A DNA stretch of 37,464 bases, taken from positions 1 through 37,464 of the forward strand of contig ONRQ01000014.1 of NCBI GenBank assembly GCA_900320285.1. Reading direction: 5' to 3'. The notes under the pieces are model-generated. The model worked only from the letters and a program-made list of their open reading frames with translations. It did no database searches and had not been told where the DNA came from. The position numbers were made by a program, and so were the translations under genes. Shown here in pieces: positions 7,205-35,024 of the stretch. The stretch comes from an uncultured Eubacteriales bacterium. GTDB lineage: Bacteria > Bacillota > Clostridia > Peptostreptococcales > Anaerovoracaceae. How positions within the stretch are numbered: the first letter of the stretch is position 1; each line of letters starts with the position of its first letter.

Positions 7205-8104
7205 ATGCCATCGACAAAAGAGATAAAAAACCGAATAAAAAGTGTCAGCGACACTCAGAAGATCACAAACGCGATGTATCTTATCTCTTCGACCAAGATG
7301 CGGCGCGCCCGCAAGGAAGCTGAGGAGACAAAGCCGTACTTTGACCTTCTGAGAAAGGAGATCCGCAGGATGTTCGCCATAGAAGGCGACATCACAAGCC
7401 GGTACTATGACGCTGCAGTCGATGAGGCTGTGGCAGGAGGACGTAACGGCATCCTTGTAATCACAGGCGATAAGGGCCTTGCGGGAGCCTACAACCAGAA
7501 CGTCATAAAGGAAGCGCTTGCGCTGATGGACAAGAGCGACGAGTACAGGCTGTATATTGTCGGAGATTTCGGATGGAGATTTTTCAGGACTCACGGAATA
7601 CAGATCTGCGAGGACTTTGCCCATTCGATGAATCAGCCGTCACTTGCGATGGCAAGAGACATAACACGCGAGCTTCTCGATGACTTCGACGATGGACTGT
7701 TTGACAGGCTGTACGTATGCTACACGGAGTTTTCAGGCGGCCTGAGTTTCGGAAACGCGATGCATGACAGGCTCATTCCTTTCGACAGGGATGACTTCGT
7801 GCCGGAGGGTACTGAAACGGATGTAAACGCTTCGACCGTATTTGAGTACGAGCCTGATGTGAAGACAGTACTCGAGAGAATAATGCAGTCGTATCTTGTC
7901 GGATACGTTTACTCGGCGCTGGTCAACAGCTATTCATCCGAGCAGAGCGCAAGGATGATGGCTATGGACTCAGCTAATGAGAACGCGAGCGAGCTGCTCG
8001 ACCAGCTCACACTTGAATTTAACCACCTCAGACAGAACGCGATAACACAGGAGATAACCGAAATCTCATCCGGAGCGCGAAGTTTAAGGAGTAAAAATCA
8101 ATAA
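7205..8104 (+). CDS. atpG: F1Fo ATP synthase subunit gamma
   Basis: Gamma is the rotating central shaft of F1. The 299-residue protein has the N-terminal coiled-coil helix (MPSTKEIKNRIKSVSDTQKI followed by TNAMYLISSTKMRRA), the Rossmann-like core (GILVITGDKGLAGAYNQNVI), and the C-terminal helix (MMAMDSANENASELLDQLTL, then NHLRQNAITQEITEISSGA). It starts 3 bases after atpA. The stop codon is immediately followed by the 5' strand of a long RNA stem (8106 on), so translation ends exactly where the structured RNA begins. Confidence 0.96.
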   Translation: MPSTKEIKNRIKSVSDTQKITNAMYLISSTKMRRARKEAEETKPYFDLLRKEIRRMFAIEGDITSRYYDAAVDEAVAGGRNGILVITGDKGLAGAYNQNVIKEALALMDKSDEYRLYIVGDFGWRFFRTHGIQICEDFAHSMNQPSLAMARDITRELLDDFDDGLFDRLYVCYTEFSGGLSFGNAMHDRLIPFDRDDFVPEGTETDVNASTVFEYEPDVKTVLERIMQSYLVGYVYSALVNSYSSEQSARMMAMDSANENASELLDQLTLEFNHLRQNAITQEITEISSGARSLRSKNQ

Positions 8105-8105
8105 T

Positions 8106-8316
8106 GGGATTTAATAATACTTCGACGGGTGACTCGAGGACGCCGGCACTTAGCGACTGGCAAACCGAAGGTGAAGACAGAGCTTAGTACCGCTGCGTCC
8201 GAATGAAATGCTTTCTTGTTCACCACGGCGTTGCCGTAGTGTAGAAAGCATTAATCTACGTCGGCAAGCTCCTTCGATAACAGCGAGAGCGTGCCCGGCA
8301 AGTATTATTAAAGCCC
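8106..8316 (+). ncRNA. Large structured RNA between atpG and atpD (raiA-class candidate)
   Basis: The 239-base gap between atpG and atpD folds into an elaborate RNA. The closing stem pairs 8110-8122 with 8300-8312 (13 bp, no mismatch), extended outward by GGG 8106-8108 / CCC 8314-8316 and inward by CGGG 8126-8129 / CCCG 8294-8297. Inside are GGACGC 8138-8143 / GCGTCC 8195-8200 continued by CGG 8144-8146 / CCG 8190-8192. There is also a long hairpin of 10 bp (8207-8216 / 8243-8252) topped by 8221-8229 / 8233-8241, and a short GCTC/GAGC stem (8268-8271 / 8287-8290). Unpaired stretches (GGTGACTC, CACTTAGC, GGCAAACC, GAGCTTAGTACC) look like conserved-motif RNA. Size and motifs resemble my memory of raiA RNAs of Firmicutes; I could not run a covariance search, so the class name is tentative. 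The structure itself is strong. Confidence 0.8.
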
Positions 8317-8331
8317 ATCTAATGAACTTAA

Positions 8332-9729
<1,398 letters not shown>

Positions 9730-15525: not shown

Positions 15526-15672
15526 CGAAATCGGGCGGGCGGCCTGCTGTGCGCGGGGGCCCTGCGCAATGGGGCACCGTGAACCATGTCAGGACCGAGA
15601 GGTAGCAGCATTAAGCGATCTGTCCTGTGTGCCGCAGATCAGCCTCTGCGTACTGCAGACCGCCCGCTTATT
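15526..15672 (+). ncRNA. ffs: Signal recognition particle RNA (small, 4.5S-like)
   Basis: The conserved SRP domain IV is plain: GTCAGGACC, then the tetraloop GAGA and GGTAGCAGC followed by ATTAAG (about 15588-15615), which binds Ffh. The ends pair as GCGGGCGG (15535-15542) with CCGCCCGC (15660-15667), followed by TTATTTTATT as a likely terminator. At about 145 bases it is closer to the short 4.5S form than to the long Bacillus type with an Alu domain. The tetraloop is GAGA rather than the common GGAA, still a GNRA fold. Its place directly upstream of dnaX is the classic Gram-positive arrangement. Confidence 0.92.
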
Positions 15673-30470: not shown

Positions 30471-30656
30471 ATGATAGATAACAAAGCAATAGATGAAGCT
30501 ATGAAGAAGCTTGACAGAAGACTGTTCTATAATATGCAGATTGCTATTATCAGCAGGGCCCAGTCAGAAGGACTATTCTTCGACATGATGGAAGGTGAGA
30601 GCCTGAAGTTAAAGATACGTGAAAACTATTATAAAGAAACCAGAGAGCGACTCTAA
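30471..30656 (+). CDS. Hypothetical 61-residue protein
   Basis: A short protein (MIDNKAIDEAMKKLDRRLFY, ending ETRERL) with a strong ribosome site AGGAGGG at 30455-30461. It is charged and helical with no recognised domain. Its stop overlaps the start of the ParB-like gene by one base, so the two are translated together. It opens the element's gene set. Confidence 0.75.
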   Translation: MIDNKAIDEAMKKLDRRLFYNMQIAIISRAQSEGLFFDMMEGESLKLKIRENYYKETRERL

Positions 30657-31537
30657 TGGCAAATTCAGTTACAGCAGATAAACAGTTAATAATGCTGGGA
30701 TCCCTGCTCGATTCCTTTATAAGTGAATGCGAAGCAGCAAAGCAGGATCTAGCCTGTATCCATAATATACCTGTTGAAAAAATAGATTTGTTCCCGGACC
30801 ATCCTTATTATGTTGACAACGACGAGGATATGGCCAATCTGGTGAGGTCAATTAAAGCTATCGGCCAGATTTCACCGGGAATAACACGTGTAAAGAAAGA
30901 TGGAAGATATGAATTACTATCAGGGCATAGACGATTATGGGCCTGCAGACTTGCTTGTATTAAGACCTTTAGATGTGAAGTTCTGGATCTGTCTGACGAG
31001 GATGCCTTGATATATATGATCGAAGCAAACCGGCAGAGACAGAAGCTCCATCCCGGAGAAAAAAGCCAGGTATACAGGCTCAAAAGAGAAGAATTAAATG
31101 GCAGACAAAACATAAGCGACATCAGGATCGATGCACGTGACAATACTGATCAGATCAGGTTATATATGAGACTCGGATATCTTATACCTGAAATTCTGGA
31201 TATGGTTGATGAGGGTATAATAGCACTCAGACCGGCTGCCTCTGTTTCTTTTCTTTCTGAAGGGCTGCAACGCTACCTTCTGGAAAACATGGAGTATGAG
31301 CAGAAAACACCTTCGTATTCACAGGCGCTGAGAATGAAGCAATTGTTTCAGGAAGGCGTGCTTACAAGAGATAAGATCATCGACATCATGATGGAAGAAA
31401 AACCGAACCAGAGAGAACGTATTGTCCTGCATGATGAAAAGATACTTGCAAAGCTGCCCAGAGATATCCCTGCCAAAGAACAGGAAGAATATATAGCCAG
31501 AGCGCTTGAGTTTTATGAAAAGCATGGGAGGCAATGA
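30656..31537 (+). CDS. ParB/Spo0J-like nuclease-fold protein with shortened HTH region
   Basis: The 293-residue protein has the ParB N-terminal domain: IPVEKIDLFPDHPYYVDNDE, GQISPGITRVKKDGRYELLS and the CTP-binding GHRR (90-93), then YMIEANRQRQKLHPGEKSQV. It is paralogous to the ParB at 34083: both have PEILDMVDEG, TPSY(S/A)QA(L/I)RM and EEKPNQRERIVLH-like segments. Where the other protein carries the HTH (LRSGQELASAVGDSQAQIYR), this one is about 13 residues shorter (NISDIRIDARDNTDQIRLYM) and the helix-turn-helix looks broken. The canonical 'ENxQR' becomes EANRQRQ. It has no ParA beside it; it may act as an adaptor or regulator. Confidence 0.88.
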   Translation: MANSVTADKQLIMLGSLLDSFISECEAAKQDLACIHNIPVEKIDLFPDHPYYVDNDEDMANLVRSIKAIGQISPGITRVKKDGRYELLSGHRRLWACRLACIKTFRCEVLDLSDEDALIYMIEANRQRQKLHPGEKSQVYRLKREELNGRQNISDIRIDARDNTDQIRLYMRLGYLIPEILDMVDEGIIALRPAASVSFLSEGLQRYLLENMEYEQKTPSYSQALRMKQLFQEGVLTRDKIIDIMMEEKPNQRERIVLHDEKILAKLPRDIPAKEQEEYIARALEFYEKHGRQ

Positions 31538-31854
31538 TGGCAAGACGGAAGACTGATGAGCAAAGAACTGAGAGACTCAGGCAAGTGCAAAGGAGCTGGT
31601 ATGAACAATCCAGACTTGGGCCGATTTATGTATCAGCTGAGGTCATCCTGTATTCAATCGATGATCTTGTAGAGATGACAGGATGGAGTCACGGAACTGT
31701 ACAGAAACTATTCAACGATCCTAAATTTCCATCGATAGATTATGGAAGGAGGAAGCTGGTAGAGAACCATTCCCTGATGCAGTTTCTGTCAGTCAGGCAT
31801 GAGAAGGAACTCGACAGTTTCTGGAGATCAACACCAGTCAAGAGGAAAAAATAG
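31537..31854 (+). CDS. Small HTH-module protein
   Basis: This 105-residue protein has one module, EVILYSIDDLVEMTGWSHGT followed by VQKLFNDPKFPSIDYGRRKL and VENHSLMQFL (about 34-82). It resembles the AlpA/excisionase-type winged HTH (helix, turn after TGWS, then a basic wing). A basic N-terminus (RRKTDEQRTERLRQVQRSWY) precedes it. I prefer the second ATG, 31537, since GGGAGG at 31526-31531 is too close to 31534. It overlaps the ParB-like stop and is followed directly by a two-module relative. Possible roles are excision, copy or transfer control. Confidence 0.8.
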   Translation: MARRKTDEQRTERLRQVQRSWYEQSRLGPIYVSAEVILYSIDDLVEMTGWSHGTVQKLFNDPKFPSIDYGRRKLVENHSLMQFLSVRHEKELDSFWRSTPVKRKK

Positions 31855-32493
31855 ATGGAACCGCATGAGTATCAGGGACAGCGTGAAACGTCCGAATATA
31901 GAAAACTATATGTGTCCGGAGAGGTGATCCTTTATTCCGCACATGACCTTGCCAGAATGACAGGGTGGAGTCTTGGCACTATATACAGATTGTTCGACGA
32001 TCCGGATATTCCGGCAATAGACTATGGAAAGGGTAAACTGGTAGAAAATCATGCACTAATGCAGTTTTTCTCATCAAGACGTGACGAAGTAAATAGATAT
32101 AGTTTTCAGCTAAAAAGAAATCCCTGGGAGGATAAAATTTACAGCAGTATCTATAGCAATCTCAGAGTTGATTATCTTGACAGATGCAAAAAAGTGGATG
32201 ACCTTCAGTTGGACTGGTTAGATGCCTTAATGATGTTTGCTTCTCCTGAAGTGGTCTTCTTCACAGAAGAGGATATCCTGAAAAAGAGTAACTGGACTGA
32301 GGAAGAGGTCAGGATGCTTTTTCTTGATTTTCGATTCCCAAGAGTAGAGTTTGCAAGGAAGAATGTCGTTGAGGTTCATGCTCTGATACATTTTTTTGCA
32401 AGGAAAGAATATGAAAAAAAGAAGCAACTGGCAGAGTACGAAAGGTATGAGGAACGCTTTGCACATTTGCATCGTGGACGGTCAGGGCGTTAA
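31855..32493 (+). CDS. Two-module HTH protein
   Basis: The 212-residue protein contains two copies of the module seen in the preceding gene. The first reads EVILYSAHDLARMTGWSLGT then IYRLFDDPDIPAIDYGKGKL and VENHALMQFFSSRRD (about 24-77). The second, diverged, reads EVVFFTEEDILKKSNWTEEE then VRMLFLDFRFPRVEFARKNV and VEVHALIHFFARKE (about 132-185). The second has lost the TGWS turn and is likely weaker in DNA binding. The start ATG follows the previous stop directly. I know no named family for this tandem arrangement. Confidence 0.8.
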   Translation: MEPHEYQGQRETSEYRKLYVSGEVILYSAHDLARMTGWSLGTIYRLFDDPDIPAIDYGKGKLVENHALMQFFSSRRDEVNRYSFQLKRNPWEDKIYSSIYSNLRVDYLDRCKKVDDLQLDWLDALMMFASPEVVFFTEEDILKKSNWTEEEVRMLFLDFRFPRVEFARKNVVEVHALIHFFARKEYEKKKQLAEYERYEERFAHLHRGRSGR

Positions 32494-32519
32494 ATAAATA
32501 CGAAGGAGGTAAAAGCATC

Positions 32520-32660
32520 ATGTTCAGACCAAAATTCAGATTCACTCATGATGAGGTGAGGATCATAGTAATGGCGCTGGTAGAACTCAAGAACCAGCTT
32601 ATATCAGAAGGCAGATACACTGATGCGGTGGATGACCTTCTAATAAAGTTCGTTGACTGA
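32520..32660 (+). CDS. 46-residue conserved-looking microprotein
   Basis: ATG at 32520 with AAGGAGGT at 32502-32510 (9 bases) opens a frame MFRPKFRFTHDEVRIIVMAL to LLIKFVD and stops at 32660. The composition suggests a small helical protein. The very strong ribosome site makes translation likely. Small proteins of this kind are common between plasmid/ICE genes; function unknown. Confidence 0.7.
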   Translation: MFRPKFRFTHDEVRIIVMALVELKNQLISEGRYTDAVDDLLIKFVD

Positions 32661-32671
32661 TGACAGTCCTT

Positions 32672-32720
32672 TCAGCTCCGGCTGAATAATTACATGGCTC
32701 CGTGCAATAAGGTGCGGAGT
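32672..32720 (+). promoter_or_regulatory. Hairpin with weak terminator features
   Basis: TGGCTCCG (about 32694-32701) and CGGAGTCA (about 32714-32721) pair with one G-U and are followed by ATTTTATTG, between the microprotein and the next gene. It may reduce readthrough or process the transcript. Confidence 0.35.
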
Positions 32721-32762
32721 CAATTTTATTGCAGCCGGGCTAACCGGAGAAAGGACAACACG

Positions 32763-33299
32763 ATGATGTTTATGAAAATGATATGCAAAGAGAAGGACGT
32801 TAATGCTAAAGAAGATAAAAAGCAGGCAGAAGCACTGAACAGAGAGTTCTATGTCATTGATCCAAAGACTGGCTTCCTGGATGTCAGAGGCGCGGATGAG
32901 ATCGAGGGCAAATCCGACAGCACGCCGGATACTGATGATTCTGAACCAGGTTCACCTGTGACTGATGTTATCGCATTTCTTGCAGACAAGACTGCCGACA
33001 GGTTCGACTGTATGGCAGATGGCATGGAAGTGATGGTTCTCAAAGAGATCGTTTACAGAATGGAGCACACTGATCCGAAAACGGCGGTGGTAATGCTGCA
33101 GTCAATGTTCATGACAAATGAACTGGAGGCAGCTGCGGTGGATCTGGATATTCTGGATATCTTCAGCGAATATGATGCAGATACTTATGAGGACTTCATC
33201 GATGAACTCTTTGATACGGAGATATTCAATCAGTTCCTGGTAGCGAACTGGCTGGATGAAGCCTTCGGAAAACCATGCGGACATGCCTGCCTAAGTTAG
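32763..33299 (+). CDS. Acidic hypothetical protein before parA
   Basis: The 178-residue product (from MMFMKMICKEKDVNAKEDKK) is not recognised. It has a lysine-rich N-terminus, an acidic Ser/Asp/Pro linker (GKSDSTPDTDDSEPGSPVTD), and a helical C-terminal half rich in Asp and Glu (DILDIFSEYDADTYEDFIDE, then LFDTEIFNQFLVANWLDEAF). I chose ATG 32763 because GAGAAAGGA lies at a good distance; a longer version from 32694 starts inside a hairpin. It lies 11 bases ahead of parA, so it is probably in the same unit. Confidence 0.7.
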   Translation: MMFMKMICKEKDVNAKEDKKQAEALNREFYVIDPKTGFLDVRGADEIEGKSDSTPDTDDSEPGSPVTDVIAFLADKTADRFDCMADGMEVMVLKEIVYRMEHTDPKTAVVMLQSMFMTNELEAAAVDLDILDIFSEYDADTYEDFIDELFDTEIFNQFLVANWLDEAFGKPCGHACLS

Positions 33300-33310
33300 G
33301 AGGTGAATGA

Positions 33311-34129
33311 ATGGCGAAGACGATAGCTATATGTAATCAGAAAGGCGGAGTCGGGAAGACAACGACTACTCTGAATCTCGGCATTGGATTGGCCAGGGAA
33401 GGAAAGAAGGTATTGCTTATAGATGGTGACCCTCAGAGCGATCTCACAACGAGTTTGGGATGGGATGCGGATTCTATCGAGAACTCACTCGGCAGGCTGA
33501 TGTATCTGGTGACTCAGAACTACAAACCTGCTGTTCAGGACACTATCCTGCATCATCCGGAGGGAGTCGATCTGATACCATCCAATCTGGATCTTTCATC
33601 GATGGAGACACAGCTTGTAAATGCTATGAGCAGAGAAAAGGTACTGTCCAATCTTTTGAAGGATGTGAAGAAGGACTATGACTATATCCTGATTGACTGT
33701 ATGCCTTCGCTTGGTATGATCACGATCAATGCTCTTACTGCAGCTGACAGTGTCATCATTCCGGTACAGGCTCAGTACCTGCCGGCAAAAGGCATGACTC
33801 AGCTGATGAAGAGCATAGACATGGTCAGGAACCATACTAATGAGAAGCTTCAGATCGGTGGCATAGTCATGACACTCGTCGACAACCGTACTAATCTGGC
33901 GAAAGATGTCACAGACAAAATCAGAACACAGTATGGGATGCACATCAGGATCTTCGACACACAGATACCGGTTGCAGTCAAAGCAGCGGAGGCATCCAAG
34001 GCAGGTATGAGCATCTTTGCCTATGACAATGACTCAAAGCCAGCCAGAGCATACGAGCAGCTGACGAAGGAGGTGATGAAGCATGGCGAACGTGAGAGAC
34101 ATAGAGATGAAGCTTCCATCACTCGATGA
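33311..34129 (+). CDS. parA: ParA/Soj-family partition ATPase
   Basis: The 272-residue protein has the deviant Walker A NQKGGVGKTTTT (residues 9-20), VLLIDGDPQSDLTTSLGW, and the Walker B YDYILIDCMPSLGMITINAL followed by VIIPVQAQYLPAKGMTQL. It lacks the N-terminal HTH of type Ia plasmid ParA, so it is Soj/type-Ib-like. It would position DNA using the partner ParB at 34083. The last 47 bases overlap the parB start, and AGGAGGTG for parB lies within it, so production is coupled. AGGAGGTGA precedes its own ATG. Confidence 0.94.
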   Translation: MAKTIAICNQKGGVGKTTTTLNLGIGLAREGKKVLLIDGDPQSDLTTSLGWDADSIENSLGRLMYLVTQNYKPAVQDTILHHPEGVDLIPSNLDLSSMETQLVNAMSREKVLSNLLKDVKKDYDYILIDCMPSLGMITINALTAADSVIIPVQAQYLPAKGMTQLMKSIDMVRNHTNEKLQIGGIVMTLVDNRTNLAKDVTDKIRTQYGMHIRIFDTQIPVAVKAAEASKAGMSIFAYDNDSKPARAYEQLTKEVMKHGERERHRDEASITR

Positions 34130-35024
34130 TCTGTTTTCCTCACAGGAGGAGAGAGACGATGCCAAGTTAAAGAGGATATATGAGATTCCGCTTGGAGAGA
34201 TCGATCCGTTTCCTGATCATCCATTCAAGGTAAGAGATGACGAGGATATGATGAATCTGGTCGAATCAGTCAGAGCGAACGGAGTGCTCACTCCAGCTAC
34301 AGTCCGGAAGAAGGAGGATGGAAGATATGAGCTTCTGTCAGGACACCGTAGGTACAGAGCCTGTCAGCTTGCCGGACTTGAGGTGCTCAGATGCGAAGTT
34401 GTCGAGATGAACCGCGACGAAGCTACAATATTCATGGTCGAGTCCAACTTCCAGAGAACGACGATACTTCCGTCAGAGAAAGCATTCGCGTATAAGATGC
34501 GACTGGATGCGATGAACAGACAGGGGCATCGCTCAGACTTAACTTTTTCTCCAGTGGATAAAAAGTTAAGGTCAGGGCAGGAACTAGCAAGTGCGGTTGG
34601 AGATAGTCAGGCGCAAATATACAGATATATCCGGCTTACAGAACTTTTACCGGAAATTCTGGATATGGTGGATGAAGGAGTGGTGGCTATGAGACCGGCT
34701 GTTGAGCTGTCATATATACCAAAACTTCAGCAGGGACAGATATGGGAGAGCATGGAACTCGAAGGCTGTACACCATCGTACGCTCAGGCCATTCGGATGC
34801 GTAAGCTTTCAGAGGATCACAAGCTTACTCCTGAGGCCATTGATGCGATCCTGATGGAGCAGAAGCCTAACCAGAAGGAACGAATTGTCCTCAGAGGTGA
34901 ACGCTTCAGCAGACTGTTCCCACCAGACTTGCCAGTATCCAAGAGGGAGGACTATGTTGCAGCTGCGATGGAACACTATGCAAGGTTCCGTGAGAAGCAG
35001 CGGTCGAGGGATGATGCGAGGTAG
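34083..35024 (+). CDS. parB: ParB-family partition protein
   Basis: The 313-residue protein has the N-terminal ParB domain (IPLGEIDPFPDHPFKVRDDE), CTP-binding SGHRRYRACQLAG (GHRR 87-90), and the MVESNFQRTTILPSEKAFAY segment. An intact HTH follows (SGQELASAVGDSQAQIYRYI, about 164-183), with a C-terminal helical region like that of the first ParB-like protein. It pairs with the overlapping parA. AGGAGGTG at 34069-34076 decides the start. The DNA target parS is not identified; I saw no obvious repeated 16-bp sites in the element's visible part. Confidence 0.92.
   Translation: MANVRDIEMKLPSLDDLFSSQEERDDAKLKRIYEIPLGEIDPFPDHPFKVRDDEDMMNLVESVRANGVLTPATVRKKEDGRYELLSGHRRYRACQLAGLEVLRCEVVEMNRDEATIFMVESNFQRTTILPSEKAFAYKMRLDAMNRQGHRSDLTFSPVDKKLRSGQELASAVGDSQAQIYRYIRLTELLPEILDMVDEGVVAMRPAVELSYIPKLQQGQIWESMELEGCTPSYAQAIRMRKLSEDHKLTPEAIDAILMEQKPNQKERIVLRGERFSRLFPPDLPVSKREDYVAAAMEHYARFREKQRSRDDAR

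What the first reader, a model, noticed from the sequence alone, without database searches (positions are those of the whole stretch)
8106..8316. Highly structured ~210-nt RNA embedded inside the ATP synthase operon
Seen: a 13-bp uninterrupted closing stem starts two bases after the atpG stop and is closed by its partner 28 bases before atpD. Inside are at least three further stems and a 10-bp hairpin capped by another helix, with conserved-looking unpaired motifs. This far exceeds chance for 239 bases. I recall similar motifs in raiA RNAs, which are abundant in Clostridia, but those usually lie near raiA or comF genes. An RNA in the middle of atp would be released by processing or act in cis on atpD levels (beta is needed in three copies, gamma in one).
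Basis: partly seen in the sequence, partly recalled or inferred. Interest (0 to 1): 0.88.

Follow-up and report, generated by a model that had tools for sequence, protein, structure and literature searches.

The report
Dispersed structured repeat inside ATP-synthase operon
The folded stretch between two ATP-synthase genes is one copy of a repeat, apparently undescribed, that is scattered through the chromosomes of many gut bacteria and folds into a conserved three-armed shape; it is not the raiA RNA, and it probably arrived here as a passenger rather than as an ATP-synthase control element.

Summary
The fold is real: z = -4.8, 0 of 200 shuffles fold as well. It is not raiA RNA: RF03072 does not match here, and the genome's raiA RNA lies on another contig. 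Window 8104-8318 is one copy of a dispersed repeat. Its core is a three-way junction: closing stem P1, a conserved hairpin P2, and a tiny hairpin P3 with a GNRA-type loop. It shows strong covariation. A model built from other copies hits the window at E = 1.7e-17, 41 of 47 genomes of the genus and 89 of 200 genomes, one per genus, of another family, probably Lachnospiraceae. In the atp operon it is an insertion: 24 of 28 readable atpG-atpD gaps of the genus lack it, and in G011 its body is inverted. No gene-orientation bias was seen. So: a mobile repeat of the BOX/bcr1 kind, new in its fold, with a 75-base module inserted in this copy. P1 arms differ between most loci yet stay complementary; at one site one arm matches pre-existing host DNA and the other its inverted copy. 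Mobiliser and function are unknown.

The parts
8104..8122 (+). left arm of closing stem P1 (13 uninterrupted bp 8110-8122 plus 5 bp 8104-8108 beyond an A.G mismatch)
   Evidence: other copies have their own, mostly differently worded arms
8126..8129 (+). inner, element-type part of P1 (CGGG, pairs with 8294-8297)
   Evidence: CM alignment
8138..8156 (+). 5' strand of conserved hairpin P2 (GGACGC CGG C AC UUAGCGA)
   Evidence: near-invariant CGGCACTTAGCGA
8157..8179 (+). variable apical part of P2
   Evidence: alignments
8180..8200 (+). 3' strand of P2 (GAGCUUAGUACCG CU GCGUCC)
8206..8280 (+). module B: 75-base self-folding module inserted between P2 and P3; absent from the orthologous atp copies of G013 and G011; parts of it are repeated by themselves elsewhere, in tandem in G021:C67
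8283..8290 (+). P3: 2-bp GC stem with GNRA-type tetraloop GAGA (8285-8288)
   Evidence: placed by alignment with copies that lack module B; in 126 of 136 copies a GNRA loop follows P2, shuffled mean 21.7
8294..8297 (+). 3' partner of the inner P1 (CCCG)
8300..8318 (+). right arm of closing stem P1
7205..8104 (+). atpG (host gene upstream; not part of the element)
   Evidence: ORF, named by my reading; congeners compared
8344..9729 (+). atpD (host gene downstream; Shine-Dalgarno-like GAGGAGG at 8333-8339)
   Evidence: named by my reading

Best explanation
Window 8104-8318 is one copy of a small interspersed, non-autonomous, mobile repeat. Its conserved core is a strand-specific fold: a three-way junction of a mostly locus-specific closing stem P1, a sequence-conserved hairpin P2, and a 2-3 bp hairpin P3 with a GNRA-type loop. 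SHOWN: structure, covariation, dispersal, presence/absence at orthologous sites, opposite body orientation at orthologous sites, no evident gene-orientation bias, and no match in the virus, phage and plasmid collections with the single query given to each. INFERRED: it entered the atpG-atpD gap after the genus had diversified and is transcribed as a passenger within the atp mRNA; the fold is the signal recognised by a trans-acting host or mobiliser protein, as RNA or as single-stranded DNA; the long arms are maintained and extended by copying one flank onto the other in inverted orientation (template switching in the palindrome), which would explain why they differ between loci yet stay complementary. 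In the atp mRNA the long stem would be a candidate RNase III or processing site with a modest effect on neighbouring expression; this is untested.
For: Fold z -4.8. A CM from 46 other copies hits the window at 68.3 bits, E 1.7e-17; its seed held the two orthologous atp copies of G013 and G011 and two paralogues of this genome. Covariation on A3: 278 cells with both sides changed against 118 shuffled and at most 132 slid, 0 of 500 shuffles as high on any of the five measures; 110 against 36.6 on 51 model matches from stretches of G765, G795 and G799. Flanking stems: score 12 or more in 106 of 136 copies, in 0 of 408 shuffled-flank controls. Copies: 41 of 47 genus genomes at E <= 0.01, up to 17 each; 89 of 200 genomes of family f37; 13-15 per 100 kb in G765 stretches. 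Presence/absence: 24 of 28 gaps without it; a 152-base presence/absence difference L174/L084 with flanks 91-92% identical. Opposite bodies at three orthologous sites. Orientation: 33 sense, 40 antisense, 26 convergent, 17 divergent, 20 at edges, of 136. Composite A+B copies at further non-orthologous loci.
Against: No mobiliser found. Of eight genomes of the genus tested, the four with copies (G000, G003, G023, G011) have no Y1_Tnp, and the two with Y1_Tnp (G014, G064) have no copies; in genus g50 Y1_Tnp is present with or without copies. RVT_1 is absent from copy-rich G003, G023 and G356. Other transposase families were not searched; neighbour clusters were only read by eye. No target-site duplication or fixed insertion end was defined. 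Strong conservation of P2 across families could mean a host function. RNA versus ssDNA is undecided: G.U exceeds A.C in arms (94 to 64) but not in A3 (81 to 68, p 0.33), and the given strand folds better with both RNA and DNA parameters. Independent insertion in both orientations could replace inversion. The host-matching arm is clear at one site only.
Confidence: 0.72

Rival explanations
1. The copies are genes of an abundant, trans-acting structured RNA: each copy is transcribed, trimmed at the long P1 stem by RNase III, and the three-way junction binds a host protein.
For: Near-invariant P2 sequence across families and a GNRA loop in 126 of 136 copies; compensatory changes even in the 2-bp P3 of orthologous copies L209/L213; strand asymmetry of mismatches, 127 A.G to 13 C.T in arms.
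Against: Presence/absence at the sites compared, 13-15 copies per 100 kb in G765, no evident orientation bias, patchy occurrence within a genus (7 of 9 g50 genomes, 0 to 15 copies). A useful RNA could also have been amplified.
Confidence: 0.15
2. The fold is a cis regulator of the operon (attenuator or RNase III site) that sets atpD relative to atpG.
For: It is on the sense strand, inside the operon, and its stem would be a good RNase III substrate (inference); BOX and ERIC repeats are reported to affect expression of neighbouring or co-transcribed genes (PMC3049150, passages seen).
Against: 24 of 28 readable gaps of the genus lack it; inverted in G011; copies elsewhere in unrelated loci in all orientations. 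A local side effect in this strain is not excluded.
Confidence: 0.08
3. It is raiA (ModT) RNA in an unusual place.
Against: No RF03072 match at E <= 10; a true raiA RNA sits on contig C48 at 133.3 bits; 17 loci with other copies give no match to the element at E <= 0.5 either.
Confidence: 0.01
4. The repeat core targets pre-existing hairpins, for example terminators, and inserts in their loops, so the arms are wholly host DNA.
For: Arms differ between most loci, and one outer arm at the C17 site matches sequence present in congeners without the element.
Against: By reading, none of the 10 empty C17 sites carries the inverted partner; the atpG-atpD, atpD-atpC and L174/L084 empty sites show no palindrome matching the arms; copies of one genome share the inner arm.
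Confidence: 0.07

Closest known systems
BOX elements of Streptococcus pneumoniae (PMC3049150: abstract and passages seen)
   Same: Small interspersed chromosomal repeat, predicted strongly folded if transcribed, modular, with a central module that folds largely by itself and may be absent or repeated; judged there to be parasitic rather than to serve the host.
   Different: Conserved end modules (boxA, boxC) and a proposed link of its ends to ISSpn2; here the centre is conserved and the outer stem is mostly worded differently at each locus. BOX-type elements are described there in streptococci; this one spans many genera. Sequences were not compared by a tool.
bcr1-bcr3 repeats of the Bacillus cereus group (PMC3446304: passages seen)
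   Same: Intergenic, multi-copy, MITE-like, often inside operons or UTRs and transcribed with them.
   Different: A cited title there calls bcr1 specific to one species group; no three-way junction with a GNRA loop is recalled for it (recalled, not checked).
REP repeats with RAYT transposases (PMC3733652: start of abstract and passages seen)
   Same: Chromosomal palindromic repeats, high copy number, no coding capacity.
   Different: REPs are 20-40 bp and GTAG- or CGTC-tagged; here 100-250 bases, and no Y1 transposase in the copy-bearing genomes of the window's genus that were tested. The tags were not searched for.
raiA/ModT RNA, RF03072 (PMC11706538: abstract and passages seen)
   Same: Structured non-coding RNA of similar length found in the same phylum.
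   Different: Different model: P1-P8 with two pseudoknots, mostly beside comFC or raiA; the same genome has a separate raiA RNA.

Membership tests
raiA/ModT RNA (RF03072) | match to the Rfam covariance model at gathering score 101.3 | tested here: not met
   none here; the only hit in the genome is on C48 at 133.3 bits
raiA/ModT RNA (RF03072) | usual location beside comFC or raiA | tested here: not met
   lies between atpG and atpD, named by reading the translations and by the congener comparison
any Rfam 15 family | score at or above gathering | tested here: not met
   for the window; for 17 loci with other copies (E <= 0.5: only two L10 leaders)
small interspersed repeat / MITE in the broad sense | multi-copy, mostly intergenic, strongly folded, no ORF inside the core | tested here: met
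   29 of 136 copies overlap a crude ORF
small interspersed repeat / MITE in the broad sense | presence/absence at orthologous sites | tested here: met
MITE in the strict sense | conserved terminal inverted repeats shared by copies | tested here: not met
   terminal stems are complementary within loci but mostly unrelated between loci; related arms occur within some genomes
MITE in the strict sense | target-site duplication | tested here: inconclusive
   TAATG at 8102-8106 and 8320-8324 flanks the window copy, but not both sides of the orthologous copy of G013
REP/RAYT | Y1 (HUH) transposase in the genome | tested here: not met
   0 matches in G000, G003, G023, G011, which have 7, 17, 11 and 10 copies; assemblies 79-97% complete. 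In genus g50 the family is present, so this test excludes it only for the window's genus
group II intron, retron or other RT element | reverse transcriptase in the genome | tested here: not met
   RVT_1 absent from G003 and G023 (and G356, 80% complete); a 60-position partial match in G000; present in G011, G096, G248
BOX element | boxA-boxB-boxC sequence modules of streptococci | not tested
   sequence models of BOX were not run; resemblance is architectural
stable independent RNA | discrete transcript | not testable with these tools
   no RNA-seq available

The most novel reading that the evidence does not exclude
A widespread, previously undescribed class of bacterial mobile element in which a GNRA-capped three-way-junction fold is the only conserved part. 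On or after insertion it builds its own closing palindrome out of host DNA by inverted copying of a flank, giving perfect arms of up to about 70 bp (L149). It would need neither an HUH transposase nor a reverse transcriptase of the families tested.
Probability: 0.25. Interest if true: 0.85.

Novelty: new variant of a known kind. Interest (0 to 1): 0.63.

Why it matters
If right, 89 of 200 sampled genera of one family, probably the dominant gut family Lachnospiraceae, carry a structured repeat that no Rfam 15 model recognised in the copies scanned, in one genome at 13-15 copies per 100 kb. It can break assemblies (three contigs of G765 start inside copies), reshapes operon spacers and supplies long hairpins to mRNAs. 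Its locus-specific yet complementary arms make a concrete, testable prediction about how palindromes grow in bacterial chromosomes. It also warns that a single highly folded spacer in an operon need not be a riboswitch or ncRNA gene.

Tried and rejected
raiA RNA: rejected. Rfam on 17 loci with other copies: nothing for the element. Insertion into pre-existing palindromes as a general rule: not supported by the empty sites read. Mobiliser search: recurrent neighbours (40 largest clusters read by eye, no family search run on them), ORFs between seven pairs of copies (by eye), a version of the core split by a long insert, Y1_Tnp and RVT_1: negative or uninformative; other transposase families not searched. 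Gene-orientation bias: none evident (crude ORF calling, 29 of 136 copies overlap a crude ORF). RNA versus DNA by G.U/A.C counts: arms 94/64, A3 81/68: undecided. Literature: searches gave no description of this repeat among the titles listed (held open-access library only; one search searched four letter strings of the core, 24 papers, 20 listed, titles unrelated).

Corrections and dropped rows: one search was a wrong parse for minus-strand loci and is replaced. The 46-of-46 GNRA count on A3 is not used as evidence because its rows had been filtered for a GNRA motif (125 of 136 copies passed, 78 after clustering). Of these 78, 64 went into A2 (14 left out: four with module B and ten with unusual linkers or arms). 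Of the 64, 44 were kept for A3 plus 2 atp copies; the 20 left out were 14 of a subtype with a longer P2-P3 linker and 6 other variants that aligned poorly. Covariation counts therefore describe the main type. P2-apex pairs were in the count but not in model R1. In G765, two of 12 stretches had been picked for known copies; without them 26 matches in 200 kb.

Full report
WHAT IS IN THE WINDOW. The atpG-atpD gap (8105-8343) contains a strongly folded element; 8090-8340 has MFE -85.9 kcal/mol, shuffled mean -64.3, z -4.8, 0 of 200 shuffles as good. The uninterrupted 13-bp stem is 8110-8122 with 8300-8312 and is prolonged by 5 bp beyond an A.G mismatch.

NOT raiA. Above gathering, Rfam 15 finds only the SRP RNA in the window; in 8060-8380 at E <= 10 only two low-scoring matches appear, a viral frameshift element and a microRNA. 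The raiA family RF03072 does occur in this genome, on contig C48:11901-12063 at 133.3 bits. Seventeen loci with other copies gave no Rfam match to the element at E <= 0.5.

IT IS A REPEAT. BLASTN of the gap against its own genome found partial copies on other contigs (C17, C53, C50, C88, C41, C68), and in congeners many copies, with the query falling into separately matching blocks. The copies share a core (window 8138-8200 plus 8281-8291) enclosed by a stem whose sequence differs at most loci. The stem scores 12 or more in 106 of 136 distinct copies and in 0 of 408 controls with shuffled flanks. The 80 titles shown include Mogibacterium sp., Candidatus Crickella equi, many Lachnospiraceae, Blautia, Dorea, Eubacteriales and one Selenomonadaceae. 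Equal contig lengths suggest that congeners G017 and G023 are Mogibacterium sp. records, G033 an uncultured Clostridiales and G012 Candidatus Crickella equi.

STRUCTURE. From 46 copies (A3, main type only; see dropped rows) the consensus is a three-way junction: P1; P2 with CGGCACUUAGCGA opposite GAGCUUAGUACCG and a conserved CU bulge; and P3, a 2-3 bp hairpin with a GNRA loop. On A3, 79.8% of 1724 cells pair against 67.2% in shuffles and at most 37.9% with partners slid. 278 cells changed on both sides against 118 shuffled; 28 of 38 pairs have double changes; 0 of 500 shuffles reached any of the five measures. On 51 model matches from stretches of G765, G795 and G799, 110 double-change cells against 36.6 shuffled (that alignment was fitted to the model, and one measure was reached by 1 of 500 shuffles). 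Among 136 distinct copies caught by a core pattern, without any GNRA filter, 126 carry a GNRA tetraloop in a 2-bp stem after P2, against a mean of 21.7 (maximum 35) in 500 shuffles. Four of the ten misses are copies with module B, where P3 lies beyond the scanned stretch. Orthologous copies L209 and L213 (93.7% identical over 4.9 kb) show compensated changes in P1, P2 and both pairs of P3. Mismatches in P1 arms are strand-asymmetric: 127 A.G against 13 C.T; G.U 94 against A.C 64 (120 of 136 copies had a stem of score 9 or more; related copies are not independent). On A3 G.U and A.C do not differ (81 and 68, p 0.33). In 109 of 136 copies the given strand folds better than its complement with RNA parameters, and in 104 with DNA parameters. 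One particular strand is therefore favoured, but RNA and single-stranded DNA cannot be told apart.

THE WINDOW COPY. The covariance model R1, built without the window copy but with its orthologues from G013 and G011, finds it at 8121-8304, 68.3 bits, E 1.7e-17, with 74 extra bases between P2 and P3. These are module B (8206-8280), a 75-base self-folding unit. Parts of it recur elsewhere, in tandem in G021:C67, and composite A+B copies occur at L010/L012, L011 and L013. The orthologous atp copies of G013 and G011 lack it.

AN INSERTION IN THE atp OPERON. AtpG was found in 40 of 47 genus genomes. In the 28 loci where both gene ends could be read (of 30 fetched, the window's genome included), the element or a remnant is in 4: G000, G013, G011 (inverted) and G003 (core deleted, arms and tail kept). 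The other 24 have other, mostly short, gaps, judged by reading. Coordinates show a further inverted copy in G021. In G033, G026, G004 and G008 a copy follows atpD, before atpC where that could be read, and in G063 one lies between atpA and atpG. The closest congeners by AtpG (G033, G004, G026; 97%) have 8-14 base gaps here.

MOBILITY AND ARMS. Between MAG loci L174 and L084 one copy is present/absent with a 152-base difference (flanks 91-92% identical); at a second site L174 seems to keep part of the arms of a copy present in L084, which reads as a deletion remnant or a small host hairpin. The body lies in opposite orientation at three orthologous sites: atpG-atpD, the C17 site in G000 versus G015, and a ddl-side site in L004 versus L121. 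At gyrB-gyrA, rplL-rpoB and cysS-mrnC sites (gene names by my reading of translations) different species carry copies with quite different arms. At the C17 site, 13 genomes were compared: G000 and G015 carry the element, G026 a remnant, 10 none. The right outer arm, TTGAATCTCTGTTTA, exists exactly in 5 of these 10 and with one mismatch in 2 more; by reading, none of the ten has the inverted copy that forms the left arm in G000 and G015. That these ten are all later losses keeping one arm is less likely but not excluded. In L197 the outermost 15 bases of the right arm are a perfect inverted copy of its left flank, which is not so in its orthologue L211. Some Lachnospiraceae MAG copies have perfect arms of 50-70 bp (L085, L081, L149). 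I infer that arms are extended or rewritten by inverted copying of a flank. Against this as a rule: at the atp sites and for the L174 copy no arm is visible in the empty site.

DISTRIBUTION. 41 of 47 genomes of the genus at E <= 0.01, up to 17 copies. In a class sample, 7 of 291 genomes: the window's own and six, all of one family f37; 0 of 5 other genera of the own family. In f37, 89 of 200 genomes, one per genus. f37 is probably Lachnospiraceae, by the titles (inference). In a phylum sample, 7 of 398, including nine copies in G715 of another family and two weak matches near E 4e-5. Large searches score only 9-19 candidates per genome, so copy counts there are lower bounds. In G765, 36 matches in 238 kb, three of them cut by contig starts, or 26 in the 200 kb not picked for known copies. 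Patchy within genus g50: 7 of 9 genomes, 0 to 15 copies. None in viral contigs by exact pattern, and no blastn match in plasmids (query the L014 copy) or phages (query an L103 copy).

HOW IT WORKS. Orientation to neighbouring genes shows no evident bias (33 sense, 40 antisense, 26 convergent, 17 divergent, 20 at edges, of 136; crude ORFs), which argues against a cis-regulatory role as the reason for its spread. Two usual mobilisers were sought in 16 genomes. Y1 transposase is absent from G000, G003, G023 and G011 (7, 17, 11 and 10 copies) and present in G014 and G064, which have none; in the eight g50 genomes tested it is present whether copies are many or none. Reverse transcriptase is absent from G003, G023 and G356. 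No recurrent neighbour recognised by eye and no core split by a long insert suggests an autonomous parent. The best reading is a BOX-like passenger mobilised in trans by something not yet identified, with the fold as its recognition signal. In the window it adds a long hairpin to the presumed atp mRNA while leaving the ribosome-binding site of atpD in place.

COMPARISON. The nearest kind is the small interspersed repeat: BOX (PMC3049150, abstract and passages), bcr1-3 (PMC3446304, passages) and REP (PMC3733652, passages). It shares small size, intergenic dispersal, strong folding and modularity. It differs in having a conserved centre with variable ends, a GNRA-capped junction and a spread over many genera. 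Searches of the held library listed no description of it; subscription journals are mostly not held.

Noticed in passing
8206-8280 (window); tandem in G021:C67:1348-1553: Module B is a second, separate dispersed repeat of 75 bases that folds by itself and occurs alone, in tandem (partial matches), and inside copies of the main repeat, much like boxB in BOX elements.
   Followed up: partly
L001 (G000:C48:11901-12063): The genome's genuine raiA (ModT) RNA, 133.3 bits.
   Followed up: no
15553-15652: Bacterial small SRP RNA (RF00169, 61.5 bits), just upstream of a gene that reads like dnaX (my reading of the ORF).
   Followed up: no
L249-L255 (G795) and L237-L248 (G765): Neighbouring copies closer than 1 kb are arranged minus-then-plus (5' arms facing each other): 9 of 9 such pairs in the G765 stretches. 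The seven G795 pairs were fetched because they were pairs; there they form similar composite units of about 390-530 bases.
   Followed up: partly
L018 (G020:C44, locus 2-617): Tandem array of three copies and a cut fourth, spaced about 160-190 bases.
   Followed up: no
L081, L140, L149 (Lachnospiraceae MAG contigs): Copies with near-perfect or perfect closing arms of 60-70 bp, far longer than a structural RNA should need.
   Followed up: partly
30656-35024: ORFs that look like a ParA and two ParB-like proteins with small helix-turn-helix-like proteins between them, suggesting an integrated plasmid-like element (my reading of the translations; no search run).
   Followed up: no
L209 versus L213: In this orthologous pair the repeat has diverged more than its flanks, with compensated changes, while other orthologous copies of the same two genomes are nearly identical; replacement by another copy is possible.
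   Followed up: no
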